A stretch of 5,479 nucleotides of DNA. Origin: a bacterium (GTDB lineage Bacteria; 4484-113; JALSIF01). The notes below the pieces were generated by a model. That model made no database searches. It was not told the DNA's origin and was given only the letters and a program-made list of their open reading frames with translations. The position numbers and the translations under genes are program-made. The stretch is taken from positions 1-5,479 of the forward strand of contig JALSIF010000040.1 in assembly GCA_026981635.1 (NCBI GenBank), given 5' to 3'. The first letter of the stretch is position 1. Every line of letters begins with the position of its first letter. This document shows positions 1-5,479 of this stretch, one piece after another.

Positions 1-99
1 GTCCCTGAGGCTAATCCCCAGGGTGACGGTGCGCACGTCACAGTGGTAGCTCTCCACCATCTGGAGAGCGGCAAGGATCTCTGCCCGGGTAAGCTCCAC
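1..99 (-). CDS. DUF711/UPF0210 family protein, N-terminal 33 codons only
   Basis: Read from 99 down to 1, a GTG start gives 33 residues in one open frame, ending at the window edge. The segment VRTVTLGISLRD matches, from memory, the near-invariant N-terminal signature of the UPF0210/DUF711 family (usually IRTVTMGISLLDC). The preceding ELTRAEILAALQMVE matches the family's usual first helix, which starts at about this position. The family is distantly related to pyruvate formate-lyase-like folds and its reaction is unknown. In many genomes it lies next to a UPF0237 ACT-domain gene, and an ACT-domain gene occurs on the same strand at 3413-4084. The GTG is the only standard start that fits: an in-frame TAG lies 12 codons upstream, with only a CTG between. 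There is no Shine-Dalgarno sequence, but a -10-like TAGAAT sits 8 nt upstream (see 108-116). The identity rests on a short fragment. Confidence 0.7.
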   Translation of the reverse strand, partial: MELTRAEILAALQMVESYHCDVRTVTLGISLRD

Positions 100-245: not shown

Positions 246-320
246 GATTGGGATACCCACCAGGGGTATCATGCGGACTCTTTGTTAGTAAGAAAATGAT
301 ACCGTTGCCCAATCGGTGGG
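246..320 (+). repeat. Interlocking inverted repeats in the lipoprotein leader
   Basis: Several perfect inverted repeats overlap. GATACCC (252-258) pairs with GGGTATC (264-270) around a 5-nt loop. GGTATCAT (265-272) also pairs with ATGATACC (296-303). Outside that, GATTGGG (246-252) pairs with CCCAATC (308-314). CCCACC (256-261) pairs with GGTGGG (315-320). The first pairing excludes the second, because both use 265-270. The set ends about 30 bases before the Shine-Dalgarno of the first lipoprotein. It could be a switching leader RNA or a multi-site operator. The repeats are seen directly; the role is inference. The rest of 100-366 holds nothing else I can identify. Confidence 0.6.
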
Positions 321-350
321 CACTGTGGTAGACTTGGTAAGCTTATCTGA

Positions 351-357
351 AAGGAGG
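351..357 (+). promoter_or_regulatory. Ribosome binding site that sets the first lipoprotein start
   Basis: AAGGAGG lies 9 nt before the ATG at 367. This strong site, and the signal peptide that follows directly, favour ATG 367 over the upstream in-frame GTG at 316. The GTG has no such site and lies inside the inverted-repeat region. Confidence 0.9.
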
Positions 358-366
358 TTAAATATC

Positions 367-1353
367 ATGCTGGAAGCAAGAAGGAGATTCCAGGCAGCTT
401 GGAACACAATCCCCTCCTTAGGCTGGCTCTTTCTTGCTTTTCTGCTCTTGTACATCTCTGGTTGTAACCCGGCTGAAGTCTCGACAGACGGCTATCTGAG
501 AGACGGAGAGCAAGCCGTCTCCTCCCCGCTAATAGGGCAGGATGCTTCCCTGCCCCGGAGCCTTGCCACCCAGCCAGCTGATGACTTTCCTTTCCGGATC
601 TATCCTTGCGGTGAAAAGAAGGAGTTCGGAAATTGGAAAGAAATTTACGAACTATACGAGGACTTTACCCGCACTCTTCCAAGTGGTGAGAAAGTAACTT
701 TAGATGAGCCTTCATTTTGTGACAGCATCTATTGGGGAACAAAAAGGCCCATCTACAAGCGTGTGTCAGTCATAGCTTCAGCTCTATCAGTCATTCCGGT
801 TTCCGAGCGCACGCCGGAAAAGCTTGAGCAAGCGTTGGCCACCTTCCCCAACTGGGTGTGGCCCAAGTGGGGCCATTTCAGCGTGGAGTACGAGCTGGTC
901 AGTCCGCACCAGCTTCTGGTGAAGCTCATTCCCGGGCGGGGGGGAAACTTTGAATGCGTCTACCGTAACTTCTGGCTGGGGGACCGGGATTATGCTTATG
1001 GCTACTACCAGCTAAACGATCCCCGGCGGGAGGTGCCTTTGGAGGAGCGTTGGGACTACCAGTCTGGATCCCAAACCTGGCACAACGAGCGATACCTGAA
1101 GGGCTGGTTTGAGCCGGCGCTGGTCAACTTCTACCTCTATGCGGGGAGGACCCCCGGTTCCATAGACGAGCTGTTGAGCTTCTATGAGCTGGAGAGGAAT
1201 CCGGACTACCCGGGCATCTGGAACACGCTCAGGTTTGAGTCCTGGGAGACCGGCGCCCGCATCAGCTACCGCCTGCCCTCAAGCGGGGAGGAGGTGGAGG
1301 CGGTGGTAGAGCTTGCCGACCAGAACAAGCGCCACAGTTTCGGCTTCAATTGA
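367..1353 (+). CDS. Predicted lipoprotein of unknown function, first paralog
   Basis: The 328-residue protein begins MLEARRRF, a basic n-region, followed by a hydrophobic stretch (about residues 18-30) and the lipobox ISGC with Cys33. It should be exported, cleaved before Cys33 and lipid-anchored. The mature part starts with a Ser/Gln/Pro-rich linker. A globular domain follows from about residue 74, opening with FPFRIYPCGEKKEF and later holding the conserved stretches LATFPNW, GGNFECVYRNFWLG and YPGIWNTLRFESWETGARI. Besides Cys33, Cys81 and Cys197 are shared with the downstream paralog and might form a disulfide; Cys118 is unique to this copy. I recognise no family. A weak resemblance of AGRTPGSIDELLSFYEL to the 'YPTSLDEL' region of pseudopilins is only suggestive. 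The next gene starts 28 bases after the stop, so the two probably form one unit. The 5' half is unusually AT-rich: hand count 42% GC over 601-780, against about 68% over 1201-1320. This makes the gene a base-composition mosaic. Confidence 0.9.
   Translation: MLEARRRFQAAWNTIPSLGWLFLAFLLLYISGCNPAEVSTDGYLRDGEQAVSSPLIGQDASLPRSLATQPADDFPFRIYPCGEKKEFGNWKEIYELYEDFTRTLPSGEKVTLDEPSFCDSIYWGTKRPIYKRVSVIASALSVIPVSERTPEKLEQALATFPNWVWPKWGHFSVEYELVSPHQLLVKLIPGRGGNFECVYRNFWLGDRDYAYGYYQLNDPRREVPLEERWDYQSGSQTWHNERYLKGWFEPALVNFYLYAGRTPGSIDELLSFYELERNPDYPGIWNTLRFESWETGARISYRLPSSGEEVEAVVELADQNKRHSFGFN
1203..1278 (+). repeat. Near-identical segment shared by the two lipoprotein genes, copy 1
   Basis: This 76-bp stretch matches 2206-2281 (constant offset 1003) with only two differences, C/T at 1251 and C/T at 1260. 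Both are synonymous, and the first 48 bp are identical. The rest of the two genes differs far more, including at third codon positions. Confidence 0.95.
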
Positions 1354-1381: not shown

Positions 1382-2356
1382 ATGAGGAGAGATGAGAACT
1401 CGAGAGTTCTCCTACTGACAGGTTTCACCCTGCTGGCGGTGTTCTGGTTGAGCGGGTGCAATCCCCTTGACCGCTCAAACACCGAGATCTTTTTTGCCAG
1501 CGAGGCTGTGGTTGGCCCCGCCTTGACCGGTCAGGGAAATGGGGCAACATCATTTCCGGCAAGGACCATCTCGGGCGGGGAGGAGGTCCCCTTCCAGATG
1601 TACCCCTGCGGAGAAAAGAAGGAGTTCAGCAGCTGGAAGGAACTGTCTGGCCTCTACGACCGCTTCACTCGCCAACTCCCCAACGGCCAGGTCTTTACCG
1701 ACTACGAACCGGGATTCCGCAGCATGGTGATGCAGGGAACCACCCTCCCCTTTGAGAAGCGGGTGGTTGATCTGGCCACCGCCATGTCTTCCATTCCTCC
1801 CTCCGAGCGCACCCAGGCCAAGTTTGAGCAAGCCCTGGCCACCTTCCCAAGCTGGGCAAAGCCCAAGCCCGGCCACTTCACCGTGGAGTATGAGTTCCTG
1901 CCGGAGAGGGGGACTGTGGCCGTAAGGACCTATCCCGGCACCGGGGGCAACATTGAGTGCATGTTCAAGAACTTCTGGCTAGGGAGCAACGACTATGGCT
2001 ACTACGACTGGCCGGTAAGAGATACAGGCCAGTATGCCCCTGGAAGCGACCGGTGGGACTACCAGAACCGACCCCTTCCCCACACCAGCGAGAATGACCT
2101 GTCCCAGTGGTTCATGCCGGCGGTGGTCCACTTCTACATCTACATGGGCCGGACTCCTGCCACCATGGAGGAGCTGCTGGACTTCTACGAGCTGGAGAAG
2201 AACCTGGACTACCCGGGCATCTGGAACACGCTCAGGTTTGAGTCCTGGGAGACTGGCGCCCGTATCAGCTACCGCCTGCCCACATCGGCCAGGGAGGTGG
2301 TGACCGAGGTAGAGCTGGCTGACAAGAACAGGCGGTTCCTCCCCAACTGGCCCTGA
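1382..2356 (+). CDS. Predicted lipoprotein of unknown function, second paralog
   Basis: The protein has 324 residues and the same layout as the upstream gene: n-region MRRDENSR, a hydrophobic core (about residues 9-22), lipobox LSGC with Cys26, a low-complexity linker, then the shared domain from about residue 70. Conserved landmarks are PFQMYPCGEKKEF (Cys76), LYDRFTRQLPNG, EQALATFPSW, GGNIECMFKNFWLG (Cys193), RWDYQ and YPGIWNTLRFESWETGARI. Cys76 and Cys193 correspond to Cys81 and Cys197 of the first copy. Aromatic residues are abundant, as in extracytoplasmic binding or structural domains, but no function can be assigned. The gene is evenly GC-rich (about 59% over 1621-1740 by hand count), closer to the flanking genes than the first copy's 5' half. 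A strong hairpin follows 12 bases after the stop codon. Confidence 0.92.
   Translation: MRRDENSRVLLLTGFTLLAVFWLSGCNPLDRSNTEIFFASEAVVGPALTGQGNGATSFPARTISGGEEVPFQMYPCGEKKEFSSWKELSGLYDRFTRQLPNGQVFTDYEPGFRSMVMQGTTLPFEKRVVDLATAMSSIPPSERTQAKFEQALATFPSWAKPKPGHFTVEYEFLPERGTVAVRTYPGTGGNIECMFKNFWLGSNDYGYYDWPVRDTGQYAPGSDRWDYQNRPLPHTSENDLSQWFMPAVVHFYIYMGRTPATMEELLDFYELEKNLDYPGIWNTLRFESWETGARISYRLPTSAREVVTEVELADKNRRFLPNWP
2206..2281 (+). repeat. Near-identical segment shared by the two lipoprotein genes, copy 2
   Basis: This is the counterpart of 1203-1278, with two synonymous differences at 2254 and 2263. It covers the codons for DYPGIWNTLRFESWE and the following TGARISYRLP. Confidence 0.95.
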
Positions 2357-2416: not shown

Positions 2417-3370
2417 TCAGCTCGCCGATGCCCCGGTGACGGCTGGGCAGGCCATCTGTACAAAGCGGTCAAAGAGCTTCTCCTCGTAGGTGAGGGTAAG
2501 CTCCTCCGGGCTCATCCCCGACTGGATCAGGGCCTGGGTTGCCCTCAGCCCCAGGAAGTAGCCGAAGCGGCCGGGAAGCTCCACCCCCCCGAGCGAAACC
2601 GGCTCCGTCTGAAAGAGGAGCCTCTCAAACACCTCCTCCTCATCGCTCTCAATCGCCTCCACCACCTCCCCCAGGTGTTTGGCATAGACCTCCCCTGCCC
2701 GCTCATACTCCTCCTCTGAGTAGCCCAGCACCGCCGGCTCCTCCCGGCCGGTGAGCTCCAGCGACTCCCAGGTGGCCATCCCCTCGTCCATCACGAAGGC
2801 CTTGATGGGGCAGAGGGGGCGAAGCTTGCTAATCAGCACCCCGGTGCTCAGGGCAAGCTCGTTGAACCAGGAGCGGGTGCGGTGGTCCAGGGAAAGGTAG
2901 CGGCGAAGGTGGGCAAGCTCGTGGGATAGCCAGATGGGAAGGTTCTCCAGGGGTACCCTGAGGCTGGGCTCGGGAGCATCCTCGCCAAACTGCTCCAGGC
3001 AGATGCCCACCATCCCCACCCCCTGCTTGGCCCCCTGGAAGGCGTTGGAGAAGAAGAGGCCGGGCATTAGGACCACATAGATCTCCCTTTCGCCGAGGCC
3101 CATCCGCTCCTCAAGCTCCCGGGCCAGCCGCTCCGCCTCCTGGCCGATCCGGTCGCGCACCCCGAGCACATGCTCCCGGTAGGCATCCCTTTCTACCGCG
3201 GATAGAATCTCTTTGGCATCCTCCCCCTTCTCCAGACCGGCAAGGTCGGTGAGGTAGCGCTCGGCAAGGTAGGGGGAGTAGTCGGCCAGGGCCTCCCAGT
3301 AGCCCTCCCCGTCGGCCTCAACCACCCTGTCCAGCAGCAGTTCGGTTAGATCGTTTACCCTCACACCCAT
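2417..3370 (-). CDS. Predicted zinc metallopeptidase, HExxH type, DUF2268-like
   Basis: The protein has 317 residues, no signal peptide and no membrane segment, so it is probably cytoplasmic. Residues 150-154 read HELAH, the HExxH zinc motif: His150 and His154 would be ligands and Glu151 the catalytic base. About 42 residues later MDEGMATWE supplies a plausible third ligand (Glu196), the gluzincin arrangement. The order of a beta strand with LMPGLFFSNAFQG, VGICLEQFG, HExxH, DEG and a C-terminal GYFLGLRATQAL segment resembles the DUF2268 group of predicted Zn-dependent proteases. That assignment is from memory and less sure than the zinc motif. The substrate is unknown. The ATG at 3370 has no Shine-Dalgarno sequence, and a TAGAAT lies 9 nt upstream. 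The gene begins 42 bases after the ACT-domain gene ends, so it could be read through from it or start separately. Confidence 0.85.
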   Translation of the reverse strand: MGVRVNDLTELLLDRVVEADGEGYWEALADYSPYLAERYLTDLAGLEKGEDAKEILSAVERDAYREHVLGVRDRIGQEAERLARELEERMGLGEREIYVVLMPGLFFSNAFQGAKQGVGMVGICLEQFGEDAPEPSLRVPLENLPIWLSHELAHLRRYLSLDHRTRSWFNELALSTGVLISKLRPLCPIKAFVMDEGMATWESLELTGREEPAVLGYSEEEYERAGEVYAKHLGEVVEAIESDEEEVFERLLFQTEPVSLGGVELPGRFGYFLGLRATQALIQSGMSPEELTLTYEEKLFDRFVQMACPAVTGASAS

Positions 3371-3379
3371 GGCATAGAG

Positions 3380-3385
3380 ATTCTA
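3380..3385 (-). promoter_or_regulatory. Possible -10 box for the peptidase gene
   Basis: On the minus strand TAGAAT (5/6 to TATAAT) ends 9 nt before the ATG at 3370, which would give a leader of only about 2-3 bases. No TTGACA-like -35 is visible. It lies in the 42-base gap after the ACT-domain gene and may be an internal promoter. Confidence 0.4.
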
Positions 3386-3412: not shown

Positions 3413-4084
3413 TTAGAGGCGGTGGATGTAGTTGAAGAGCTCCTCGCTCTGCAGGCCCACCAGCAGCCCCAGCCTCACCCCCAGGTCCTCCAGCTGGCGC
3501 TTTAGCTCCACGAAGGGCAGCCGGCAGGAGCAGGCGTCCACCCGGCCGATCACCACCGCCATCTCCCCCACCTGCTCCCGCTCCCAGCCCACCAGCCGAC
3601 AGCCGTTCTTCTCCAGGTAGGCGCGAAGCTCCCGCTCCTTGGGCTCGGTGAGCTGGCCCGCCACGGTGAGCACCAGCCGCTGGCAGAGGCCGGGACCGGG
3701 GGCAGCCTTGGCCGGCCGGTAGTCGGCCCGGGGCTGATAGGAGAAGGCGTTGCCCTGCTCCCGGCTGGGCAGGAGAAAGCCCACCTGGGGCCCGGTGTGG
3801 AGGAGGACGGGGTGTTCCTCCGGCTTGACCTTTGGCCTGACGGAGGGGGAGGCAGGGGCTCTCTGGCCGGTCCCCCTGGCCGCCTGGGCCTGCGGCGATG
3901 GGGCCGGTTTGGGTGCGGCCTTGCCCTCTTCCCCGCCGGTTCGCCTGAGTATCTCCACCACCGCCCGGGTGAGGGCCTCCGGCGGTGCGTCCATTCCCAG
4001 CTCCCTCACCGCCGCCTCAATGGCCCCCTCCACCTCGGATAGGGAGCCCACCCTGACCTGGCCCGATGGCTTGGCCAGGGGCAT
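3413..4084 (-). CDS. ACT-domain protein, UPF0237-like, with Pro/Ala-rich N-terminal region
   Basis: From ATG 4084 the ORF encodes 223 residues. The C-terminal 88 (about 136-223) look like a single ACT domain. RLVLTVAG is the first strand, followed by a helix to YLEKNGCRLVGWE, then MAVVIGRVD. The end, LEDLGVRLGLLVGLQSEELFNYIHRL in two parts (199-213, 214-223), closely fits the UPF0237 ending 'LGKELGVKI.VQ.EDIFNYMHRI'. The usual D-x-x-G-I ligand loop is replaced by QLTEPKE, so classical amino-acid binding may be lost. Residues 37-50 form an amphipathic helix (ALTRAVVEILRRTG) followed by about 30 residues rich in Pro, Ala and Lys. The ATG has no Shine-Dalgarno and no -10 close upstream, unlike the other minus-strand genes. 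The frame is open upstream to the A9 run at 4151-4159, so this may be the downstream half of a slippage or frameshift fusion. The true N-terminus is therefore uncertain. Confidence 0.72.
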   Translation of the reverse strand: MPLAKPSGQVRVGSLSEVEGAIEAAVRELGMDAPPEALTRAVVEILRRTGGEEGKAAPKPAPSPQAQAARGTGQRAPASPSVRPKVKPEEHPVLLHTGPQVGFLLPSREQGNAFSYQPRADYRPAKAAPGPGLCQRLVLTVAGQLTEPKERELRAYLEKNGCRLVGWEREQVGEMAVVIGRVDACSCRLPFVELKRQLEDLGVRLGLLVGLQSEELFNYIHRL

Positions 4085-4143
4085 GCCTGAGGGGGCCTTG
4101 GTAGCAGGGGGGGCACTACCGGTTGCCGGCGGAGGGGGGCTAG

Positions 4144-4749
4144 TTAGGGATTTTTTTTTGAGCCCTCCGACGGCGTGGGGAAGGGGCTTGCTCCCGGCGT
4201 TGGCACGGAGGGATTGCCCCGCCAGTTGGTGGAGGGGTCGTTTTCCTGCCTCACCCTGGACCGGGCGTAGGGCATCCCTTCCCGCTTCTCCGGCGGCGAG
4301 GGCCTCAGGTTCAGGTTGCCCGCCCAGCTGGGCAGGCGGTCAAAGTCGGTCCCTCCGTCCTGGTAGTAGTAGGGCCGAAATATGGGCACCTTGGGCTGGT
4401 AGGGAGTGGGGGTGAAGGCCCCGGTTACCCTCTCCGGCCGGGTCCCCTCTGGGACCTGGTGGACGAAACTCTGGGGGTTGGTGTGGGAGGGAAGCTCCGG
4501 CTCAACCATGGGCCGGTTGCCCGGCCAGTTGCTCTTGGGAATGTCGCGAAAGTGTCGCGGGTCCCGCTCCCGGTTGGTAAGGTTTCTCGGCCATGGCTGG
4601 ACCACCGGCCTTCCCCCCTTGTAGATGGTGATCCCGTGCTCCCTGGCGTGGTCGGCGGCAAGCGGCGTGATGATGGTCTCCTCGTCCACATCCAGCCGGC
4701 TGCCCGGGGGGAGCTGCTTGATGTCCGCCAGGGAGATGAGCTTGGCCAC
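4144..4749 (-). CDS. Proline-rich protein with microcompartment-enzyme-like N-terminal module and W-x-G-N repeats
   Basis: The ORF encodes 201 residues from GTG 4749. Residues 1-45 (LISLADIKQLPPGSRLDVD, then TIITPLAADHAREHGITIYKG) resemble a short module on several bacterial-microcompartment-associated proteins such as EutQ/EutT- and PduL-like enzymes. Its core pattern is 'L.VDEGTIITPLARD.A.E.GI.I'. This comparison is from memory. The rest (46-201) looks disordered: rich in Pro, Arg, Asn, Ser and Tyr, with no predicted globular core or membrane segment. It contains repeated W-x-[GR]-N motifs at residues 53, 75, 142 and 176. The start is supported by a consensus extended -10 placed for leaderless initiation. 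The last codons run through A9 (SKKNP, then TAA). A one-base shift there continues into the ACT-domain frame, giving about 445 residues. It is divergent from the aminotransferase, with 56 bases between starts. Confidence 0.8.
   Translation of the reverse strand: MAKLISLADIKQLPPGSRLDVDEETIITPLAADHAREHGITIYKGGRPVVQPWPRNLTNRERDPRHFRDIPKSNWPGNRPMVEPELPSHTNPQSFVHQVPEGTRPERVTGAFTPTPYQPKVPIFRPYYYQDGGTDFDRLPSWAGNLNLRPSPPEKREGMPYARSRVRQENDPSTNWRGNPSVPTPGASPFPTPSEGSKKNP
4151..4159 (-). other. A9 slippery run joining two ORFs
   Basis: Nine consecutive A (T on the plus strand) follow TC in the sense strand. Frame zero reads TCA AAA AAA AAT CCC TAA and stops. Adding one A, or slipping back one base, gives AAA TCC CTA ACT and then 20 further sense codons to the ATG of the ACT-domain ORF, with no stop. 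A9 runs are known sites of transcriptional slippage, as in Thermus thermophilus dnaX, and contain the A-AAA-AAA heptamer for -1 ribosomal frameshifting. A sequencing error of one A would look the same. Confidence 0.6.
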
Positions 4750-4755
4750 GGGCCG

Positions 4756-4764
4756 ATTATAGCA
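4756..4764 (-). promoter_or_regulatory. Consensus extended -10 for the proline-rich gene, leaderless
   Basis: On the minus strand TGCTATAAT is a perfect TATAAT preceded by the extended -10 TGn. Only six bases (CGGCCC) separate it from the GTG at 4749-4747, so transcription should begin at the start codon itself. No -35 match is visible in the GC-rich upstream sequence, which fits an extended -10 promoter. Confidence 0.7.
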
Positions 4765-4787: not shown

Positions 4788-4793
4788 AGAAGC

Positions 4794-4799
4794 TAGACT
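4794..4799 (+). promoter_or_regulatory. -10-like box for the aminotransferase gene, leaderless-type
   Basis: TAGACT (4/6 to TATAAT, fits TANNNT) is followed by six bases and then the ATG at 4806. The spacing is identical to that of the divergent gene. No Shine-Dalgarno is present. On its own the hexamer is weak; the shared placement strengthens it. Confidence 0.45.
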
Positions 4800-4805
4800 T
4801 TGCCC

Positions 4806-5479
4806 ATGCCGACGGAAACTGACCGCCACCTGCTCAGCCTCTACCAGAAGCACCTAAACGAGGGGCTCGCCCGCCTGATTGACTTTATGGGCCTGGCCAC
4901 CGAGGAGGTGGATGCGGAGGGCTCCATCGTGCGCACGGCAGACGGGCGCGAGTTCATTGACCTCCTTGGCGGCTACGGGGTCTTCAACCTGGGCCACCGC
5001 CACCCCCGGGTGGTGGAGGCGGTGCGGCGCCAGCTTGAGCGCATGCCCCTCTCGGCCAAGGTCTTCCTCAACCGCCCCCAGGCGGAGCTGGCCGCAAAGC
5101 TTGCCGAGATCACCCCGGGGGAGCTTGCCAGGTGCTTCTTCTGCAACTCGGGCACCGAGGCGGTGGAGGCGGCCATCAAGTTTTCCCGCCTGGCCACCGG
5201 CCGCTCCCAGGTGGTCTACGCCACCGGCGCCTTCCACGGCAAGACCCTGGGCTCCCTCTCCGCCACCGACCGTCCCCACTACCGCGACCCCTTCATGCCT
5301 CTCTTGGAGTTTCGCCTGGTCCCCTACGGCGACCCGGCCTCCCTTGAGGAGGCGGTTAGCGAGGACACCGCCTGCCTGCTCATTGAGCCCATCCAGGGCG
5401 AGGGGGGCATCGTCATCCCCCCCGACGGCTACCTTCGGGCCTGCCGCGAGGCCTGCCATCGGGCGGGCGCCCTTTTGGT
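4806..5479 (+). CDS. Class III PLP-dependent aminotransferase, putrescine aminotransferase-like, 5' part
   Basis: The frame is open from ATG 4806 to the window edge, giving 224 residues, about half of a usual 430-460. It is a fold type I, class III (ornithine/acetylornithine/4-aminobutyrate) transaminase that moves an amino group from the terminal amine of a diamine or omega-amino acid to a keto acid. Visible landmarks are FIDLLGGYGVFNLGHRHP (50-67), the PLP-phosphate loop NSGTEAVEAAIK (114-125), GAFHGKTLGSLSAT (141-154) and IEPIQGEGG (193-201). The DEVQ motif and the catalytic lysine lie beyond the window. GGYGVFNLGHRHP, FFCNSGTE, GAFHGK and PFMPLL match E. coli PatA (YgjG) closely from memory, better than ArgD. 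The substrate could still be another diamine or omega-amino acid. The start follows a -10-like TAGACT by six bases. The MPTETDRHLLSLYQKH start agrees with the family's N-terminal helix. Confidence 0.93.
   Translation, partial: MPTETDRHLLSLYQKHLNEGLARLIDFMGLATEEVDAEGSIVRTADGREFIDLLGGYGVFNLGHRHPRVVEAVRRQLERMPLSAKVFLNRPQAELAAKLAEITPGELARCFFCNSGTEAVEAAIKFSRLATGRSQVVYATGAFHGKTLGSLSATDRPHYRDPFMPLLEFRLVPYGDPASLEEAVSEDTACLLIEPIQGEGGIVIPPDGYLRACREACHRAGALL

What the first reader, a model, noticed from the sequence alone, without database searches (positions are those of the whole stretch)
3413..4749. A9 run could fuse the proline-rich protein to the ACT domain by slippage
Two codons before its stop, the 201-residue ORF crosses nine A (4151-4159, minus strand). 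The -1 frame from there reads KSLTSPPPPATGSAPPATKAPSG and enters the ACT-domain ORF at its ATG with no stop. The added linker has the same Pro/Ala-rich character as both partners. The ACT ORF has no Shine-Dalgarno and no close -10, unlike the other minus-strand genes. Two products are plausible: 201 aa, and about 445 aa made of a microcompartment-like module, W-x-G-N repeats, a Pro/Ala linker and ACT. A weak hairpin (GGTAG/CTACC, 4100-4120) is about 30 nt away, too far for a standard frameshift stimulator, so RNA polymerase slippage looks more likely. No A9-controlled ACT fusion is known to me.
Basis: partly seen in the sequence, partly recalled or inferred. Interest (0 to 1): 0.82.

Follow-up and report, generated by a model that had tools for sequence, protein, structure and literature searches.

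The report
Microcompartment module–ACT gene, frame-broken in assembly
Two neighbouring reading frames are most likely the two halves of one bacterial-microcompartment gene whose frame is broken by one base in this draft genome, and nothing found here requires the proposed slippage switch at nine A's, although slippage is not excluded.

Summary
The anatomy is real. A9 lies at 4159-4151 (minus strand); the 201-codon ORF ends six bases after it. One extra A gives a stop-free 445-codon frame into the 223-codon ACT ORF. Programmed slippage is not supported. (1) Another genome encodes the same module + Pro-rich linker + ACT as one ordinary ORF with no long A/T run. (2) At least six others carry a hairpin + ACT gene, like ORF2, as a complete separate gene after a BMC-P shell gene and before DUF711. 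So a plain fusion and two plain genes both have precedents; slippage has none. (3) Codon statistics place any frame change about 45 nt upstream of A9; the same method lands on the run in a second split gene. (4) The genome's only other A9/T9 run splits a PriA-like gene that relatives encode whole, and a C8 run splits a third gene with opposite sign. Single-base frame breaks at long runs therefore recur in this 317-contig draft, as errors or real indels. (5) No RNA structure exceeds shuffles. Best reading: one BMC-associated gene with an ordinary frame break (0.50). Rivals: two genes (0.33), A9 slippage (0.12).

The parts
4144..4749 (-). ORF1, 201 aa, GTG start: BMC module (residues 3-48), then a Pro-rich tail with W-x-G-N repeats
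   Evidence: module: TIGR02536 E 2.9e-4; 38-46% identity to modules on RpiB proteins at BMC loci; z 10.1 to G356 module; AF2 pLDDT about 91 over residues 1-50
4612..4743 (-). EutQ/PduM-like BMC module KLISLADIKQLPPGSRLDVDEETIITPLAADHAREHGITIYKGG
4756..4761 (-). TATAAT box six bases before the GTG start (leaderless-type start)
4151..4159 (-). A9 run; one of only two A9/T9 runs in the genome; contains the -1 heptamer A AAA AAA in phase
4195..4237 (-). Stretch where codon statistics place the change from ORF1 frame to ORF2 frame (best 4201-4206)
4085..4159 (-). Pro/Ala-rich linker, open in the ORF2 frame (KKKSLTSPPPPATGSAPPATKAPSG)
4100..4120 (-). Weak GGTAG/CTACC stem; region folds no better than shuffles
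3413..4084 (-). ORF2, 223 aa: helical hairpin, Pro/Ala linker, ACT domain
3935..4048 (-). Helical hairpin (SLSEVEGAIEAAVRELGMDAPPEALTRAVVEILRRTG), shared with BMC-ACT proteins of other genomes; limits approximate
3413..3700 (-). ACT domain ending in HRL
2417..3370 (-). 317-aa gene of unknown family downstream, with a TAGAAT box 9 bases before its ATG
1..99 (-). Start of a DUF711 gene at the contig edge; DUF711 follows BMC-ACT genes in other genomes

Best explanation
ORF1 and ORF2 are two parts of one gene of about 445 codons. It encodes a bacterial-microcompartment linker protein: an N-terminal EutQ/PduM-like module that docks to the shell (inferred), a long disordered Pro-rich spacer with W-x-G-N repeats, a helical hairpin, and a C-terminal ACT domain. 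The draft sequence is one base out of frame, either at A9 (9 instead of 10) or about 45 nt upstream, through a consensus error or a real indel in the population. Shown: the two frames, the domains, the relatives, and the frame breaks at other long runs in this draft. Inferred: that one intact protein is made, and its linker function.
For: One ORF in G356 encodes module + Pro-rich linker + ACT followed by DUF711, with no A/T run of 7 or more. ORF1 alone would be a docking module with a disordered tail and no other domain. The codon signal in the ORF2 frame extends to about 4204, well upstream of its ATG; only 1 of 224 reference gene ends shows a -1-frame advantage of 9 nats or more, and 3 show 6 or more. 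The HMM joins the two ORFs at 4206. In the same draft a T9 splits a PriA-like gene that class relatives encode in one ORF of about 710-740 codons, and a C8 splits a third gene. ORF2 has no strong start signal. Both halves are BMC-associated, and the genome has BMC shell genes.
Against: At least six genomes have the hairpin-ACT gene on its own, starting just before the hairpin, as ORF2 could. The 23-codon linker has non-coding-like codon usage. The draft is otherwise clean: 24 coding G/C8, two G/C9 and one G/C10 run keep frame. The HMM also joins several ordinary gene pairs at the same penalty, so that call is weak. No close relative of the organism is held.
Confidence: 0.5

Rival explanations
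1. Two ordinary adjacent genes: a 201-aa BMC module protein, and a 223-aa hairpin-ACT protein starting at ATG 4084. A9 near the first gene's stop is incidental.
For: In G126, G352, G059, G332, G201 and G166 the hairpin-ACT protein is a complete gene directly after BMC-P and before DUF711. ORF2 from its ATG covers hairpin + linker + ACT. The linker has poor codon usage. About 30% of internal genes with a similar gap have no detectable start signal.
Against: G356 has module and ACT in one ORF. Codon signal of the ORF2 frame extends about 120 nt upstream of the ATG. An A9 run, one of two in the genome, falls where +1 fuses the frames.
Confidence: 0.33
2. Slippage at A9 (RNA polymerase inserting one A, or a -1 ribosomal shift on A AAA AAA) makes both a 201-aa and a 445-aa product, as first proposed. 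The T9 in the PriA-like gene would be rescued in the same way.
For: Both A9/T9 runs in the genome lie at frame breaks of the same sign, whereas none of 20 A9+ runs examined in class relatives does. A9 is slippage-prone in several bacteria, including Thermus dnaX (PMC1088944). The -1 heptamer is in phase at both runs.
Against: Codon signal changes frame about 45 nt before A9, whereas in the PriA-like gene it changes at T9. No stimulator. The fused relative has no run. A C8 frame break of opposite sign shows that ordinary indels or errors occur in this draft. No orthologue conserves the run.
Confidence: 0.12

Closest known systems
EutQ N-terminal region (Salmonella/E. coli Eut microcompartment)
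   Same: Module resembles EutQ residues 1-45 through the G356 module (z 9.3 to EutQ, z 10.1 to ORF1). EutQ 1-99 is also module + flexible linker + two helices (PMC12487888).
   Different: ACT instead of the EutQ cupin; much longer Pro-rich W-x-G-N linker; hairpin similarity to EutQ H3/H4 is not significant.
ACT protein of the UPF0237/PRK00194 type paired with DUF711
   Same: C-terminal ACT with conserved HR[IL] end and a DUF711 gene nearby.
   Different: Has a hairpin, and possibly a BMC module, in front; belongs to a genome with BMC genes.
Thermus thermophilus dnaX and Shigella mxiE transcriptional slippage
   Same: Run of nine A (dnaX) or a U run (mxiE) at a frame change; mxiE slippage gives the longer product (PMC1088944).
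   Different: No conservation, transcript or protein evidence here; codon signal does not change frame at the run.
'Pseudo pseudogenes' at 9-A runs (Baranov et al. 2005)
   Same: Broken ORF with a 9-A run, single ORF in other species (PMC1088944).
   Different: Single consensus draft; the break may be an assembly error and may lie outside the run.

Membership tests
BMC-associated module (EutQ/PduM/TIGR02536 type) | Sequence similarity to the short module found at N- or C-termini of BMC proteins | tested here: met
   below the curated cut-offs of TIGR02536 and PduM, which are whole-protein models
BMC-associated module (EutQ/PduM/TIGR02536 type) | Genome encodes a BMC shell | tested here: met
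   (BMC-H on C317, BMC-P on C42)
BMC-associated module (EutQ/PduM/TIGR02536 type) | Gene lies in a BMC locus | tested here: inconclusive
   the window is a whole 5.5-kb contig without shell genes; only DUF711 links it to the BMC-P/ACT/DUF711 order
ACT domain (UPF0237 type) | beta-alpha-beta-beta-alpha-beta fold and family sequence signature | tested here: met
   Foldseek hits to ACT proteins only at E about 0.016
EutQ | C-terminal cupin | tested here: not met
   no cupin family in Pfam/NCBIfam scans; C-terminus is ACT
Programmed transcriptional slippage site | Run of 9 or more A/T where a one-base change joins two frames | tested here: met
[quoted passage not shown]
   relatives are distant, no close one is held
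Programmed transcriptional slippage site | Heterogeneous transcripts or two protein products | not testable with these tools
   no reads, RNA or proteome available
-1 ribosomal frameshift site | Slippery heptamer plus stimulatory structure | tested here: not met
   heptamer A AAA AAA in phase, but structure z 0.05

The most novel reading that the evidence does not exclude
In this lineage nine-base A/T runs are left one base short inside genes (the BMC module-ACT gene and a PriA-like gene) and are read by slippage, so that each gene yields a short and a full-length product; here this would tune the ratio of free shell-docking module to module-ACT linker.
Probability: 0.1. Interest if true: 0.7.

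Novelty: new member of a known kind. Interest (0 to 1): 0.32.

Why it matters
As a recoding case it is weak and should not be counted as a new slippage switch. As a protein it joins the EutQ-type shell-docking module to an ACT domain. If the full-length protein is real, it would be a shell-to-cargo linker whose far end could sense a small molecule, which is a testable idea for how microcompartments might be regulated.

Tried and rejected
Close orthologues: none in the class, in genome contigs or in viral contigs. PDB by sequence: nothing useful. Hairpin as an EutQ H3/H4 homologue: not significant. General homopolymer damage of the draft: rejected, since most long G/C runs keep frame and the HMM scan of about 504 kb finds few split genes. 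Class-wide habit of frame-breaking A9 runs: rejected, 0 of 20. RNA stimulator: rejected. Fold search of the module model: only weak matches with E 0.6 or more. W-x-G-N repeats as a known family: no Pfam or NCBIfam match. Several frame joins proposed by the HMM (L051, L062, L083, L086, L119, L131) are adjacent ordinary genes or too short to judge, not split genes.

Full report
WHAT IS THERE. The window is a complete contig (C40) of a draft genome of 1.745 Mb in 317 contigs, 85% complete, from a class with only ten held genomes and no close relative. The minus strand holds A9 at 4159-4151, and the 201-codon ORF (4749-4144) ends TCA AAA AAA AAT CCC TAA. One extra base there continues without a stop into the 223-codon ORF (4084-3413), 445 codons in all. 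A9/T9 occurs only twice in the genome.

WHAT THE PROTEINS ARE. ORF1 begins with a module of about 45 residues that matches the end of TIGR02536 (E 2.9e-4). It recurs at the N-terminus of RpiB in G126 and G263 and at the C-terminus of RpiB in G264, all beside BMC-P genes. A similar tail ends the PduL protein of G126. The link to E. coli EutQ is weak directly (p 0.018) but clear through the G356 module (z 9.3 and 10.1). In Salmonella EutQ, helices H1-H2 bind the shell and H3-H4 bind cargo peptides (PMC12487888). The rest of ORF1 is Pro-rich with three W-x-G-N repeats. ORF2 is a helical hairpin, a Pro/Ala linker and an ACT domain (fold predicted without an alignment, pLDDT 75; family confirmed). 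The genome has BMC-H, aldehyde dehydrogenase and BMC-P genes on other contigs.

RELATIVES. A profile search of 385 genomes gave two informative architectures. In G126, G352, G059, G332, G201 and G166 the hairpin-ACT protein is a gene of its own, between BMC-P and DUF711 (in G126 the hairpin is shortened to one helix). In G356 a single ORF holds the module, a Pro-rich linker and ACT, followed by DUF711, with no A/T run of 7 or more in the gene. The window keeps the DUF711 partner: its first 33 codons are at the contig edge, 99-1 on the minus strand. So a plain fusion and plain separate genes both have precedents; a run-controlled fusion has none.

IS A9 THE FRAME BREAK? A codon-usage model trained on this genome places the change from ORF1 frame to ORF2 frame at 4201-4206. 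A9 scores 9.6 nats worse, or 7.0 with synonymous usage only. For the PriA-like gene on C92 the same method puts the change at or within about five bases of its T9. Of 224 reference genes, 1 shows a -1-frame advantage of at least 9 nats at its end and 3 show at least 6. If the two ORFs are one gene, the break may therefore lie upstream of A9. The linker after A9 has weak codon signal, so these data do not exclude two genes, and the HMM makes several joins of ordinary gene pairs at the same penalty.

HOW RELIABLE IS THE DRAFT? Scanning about 504 kb found two clear gene-internal breaks outside the window, both at long runs. T9 splits the PriA-like gene (one base short; class relatives have single ORFs of about 710-740 codons). 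C8 on C33 splits a third gene (one base too many, judged from frame and codon signal; no homologue was checked). Twenty-four other coding G/C8 runs, two G/C9 and one G/C10 keep frame. The draft is mostly sound but breaks frame at some long runs, in both directions. This is what rare consensus errors or real replication-slippage indels would give; reads are needed to tell which.

THE SLIPPAGE READING. It remains possible. Both A9/T9 runs sit at breaks of the same sign, whereas 20 A9+ runs examined in class relatives are intergenic, at gene ends or in frame. Nine-A runs slip in bacteria, for example Thermus dnaX, and runs that could restore broken ORFs have been described (PMC1088944). Against it stand the codon signal, the absence of any conserved run, the absence of RNA structure (z 0.05) and the C8 break. 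I give it 0.12.

START SIGNALS. ORF1 and the 317-aa gene have TANNNT boxes 6 and 9 nt before their starts, a leaderless-type pattern found at about a quarter of first genes (23 of 92). ORF2 has neither that nor a well-placed Shine-Dalgarno, but 17 of 56 comparable internal genes also lack both. This is weak evidence.

VERDICT. The main value lies in the protein, a BMC docking module next to, and probably fused with, a hairpin-ACT domain. The probabilities given are judgements, not computed values.

Noticed in passing
L159, L161, L192, L193, L194, L196 (genomes G126, G352, G059, G201, G166, G332): Conserved order BMC-P shell gene, hairpin-ACT gene, DUF711 gene in six genomes: an apparently undescribed BMC-associated ACT family. 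No paper in the library held 'bacterial microcompartment', 'ACT domain' and 'shell protein' together, and neither of two BMC locus catalogues mentions an ACT domain in its main text.
   Followed up: partly
L049:2575-2583 (G000:C92:9074-9082): The genome's only other A9/T9 run splits a PriA-like gene (132 + 585 codons); class relatives have one ORF.
   Followed up: yes
L128:204-211 (G000:C33): A C8 run with an apparent extra base splits a gene of unknown family.
   Followed up: partly
window 4756-4761, 3370-3385, 4789-4806: Leaderless-type starts: a TANNNT box 4-10 nt before the start codon, at 23 of 92 first genes sampled.
   Followed up: partly
window 316-1353 and 1382-2356 (+): Two tandem paralogous genes with lipoprotein-like N-termini (LLYISGC, LFWLSGC); no Pfam family above cut-off.
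   Followed up: no
L159:3344-4258: A PduL-type protein of G126 ends in the same kind of BMC module (LLTPSARDLAR), so the module appears to be a movable tag on BMC proteins.
   Followed up: partly
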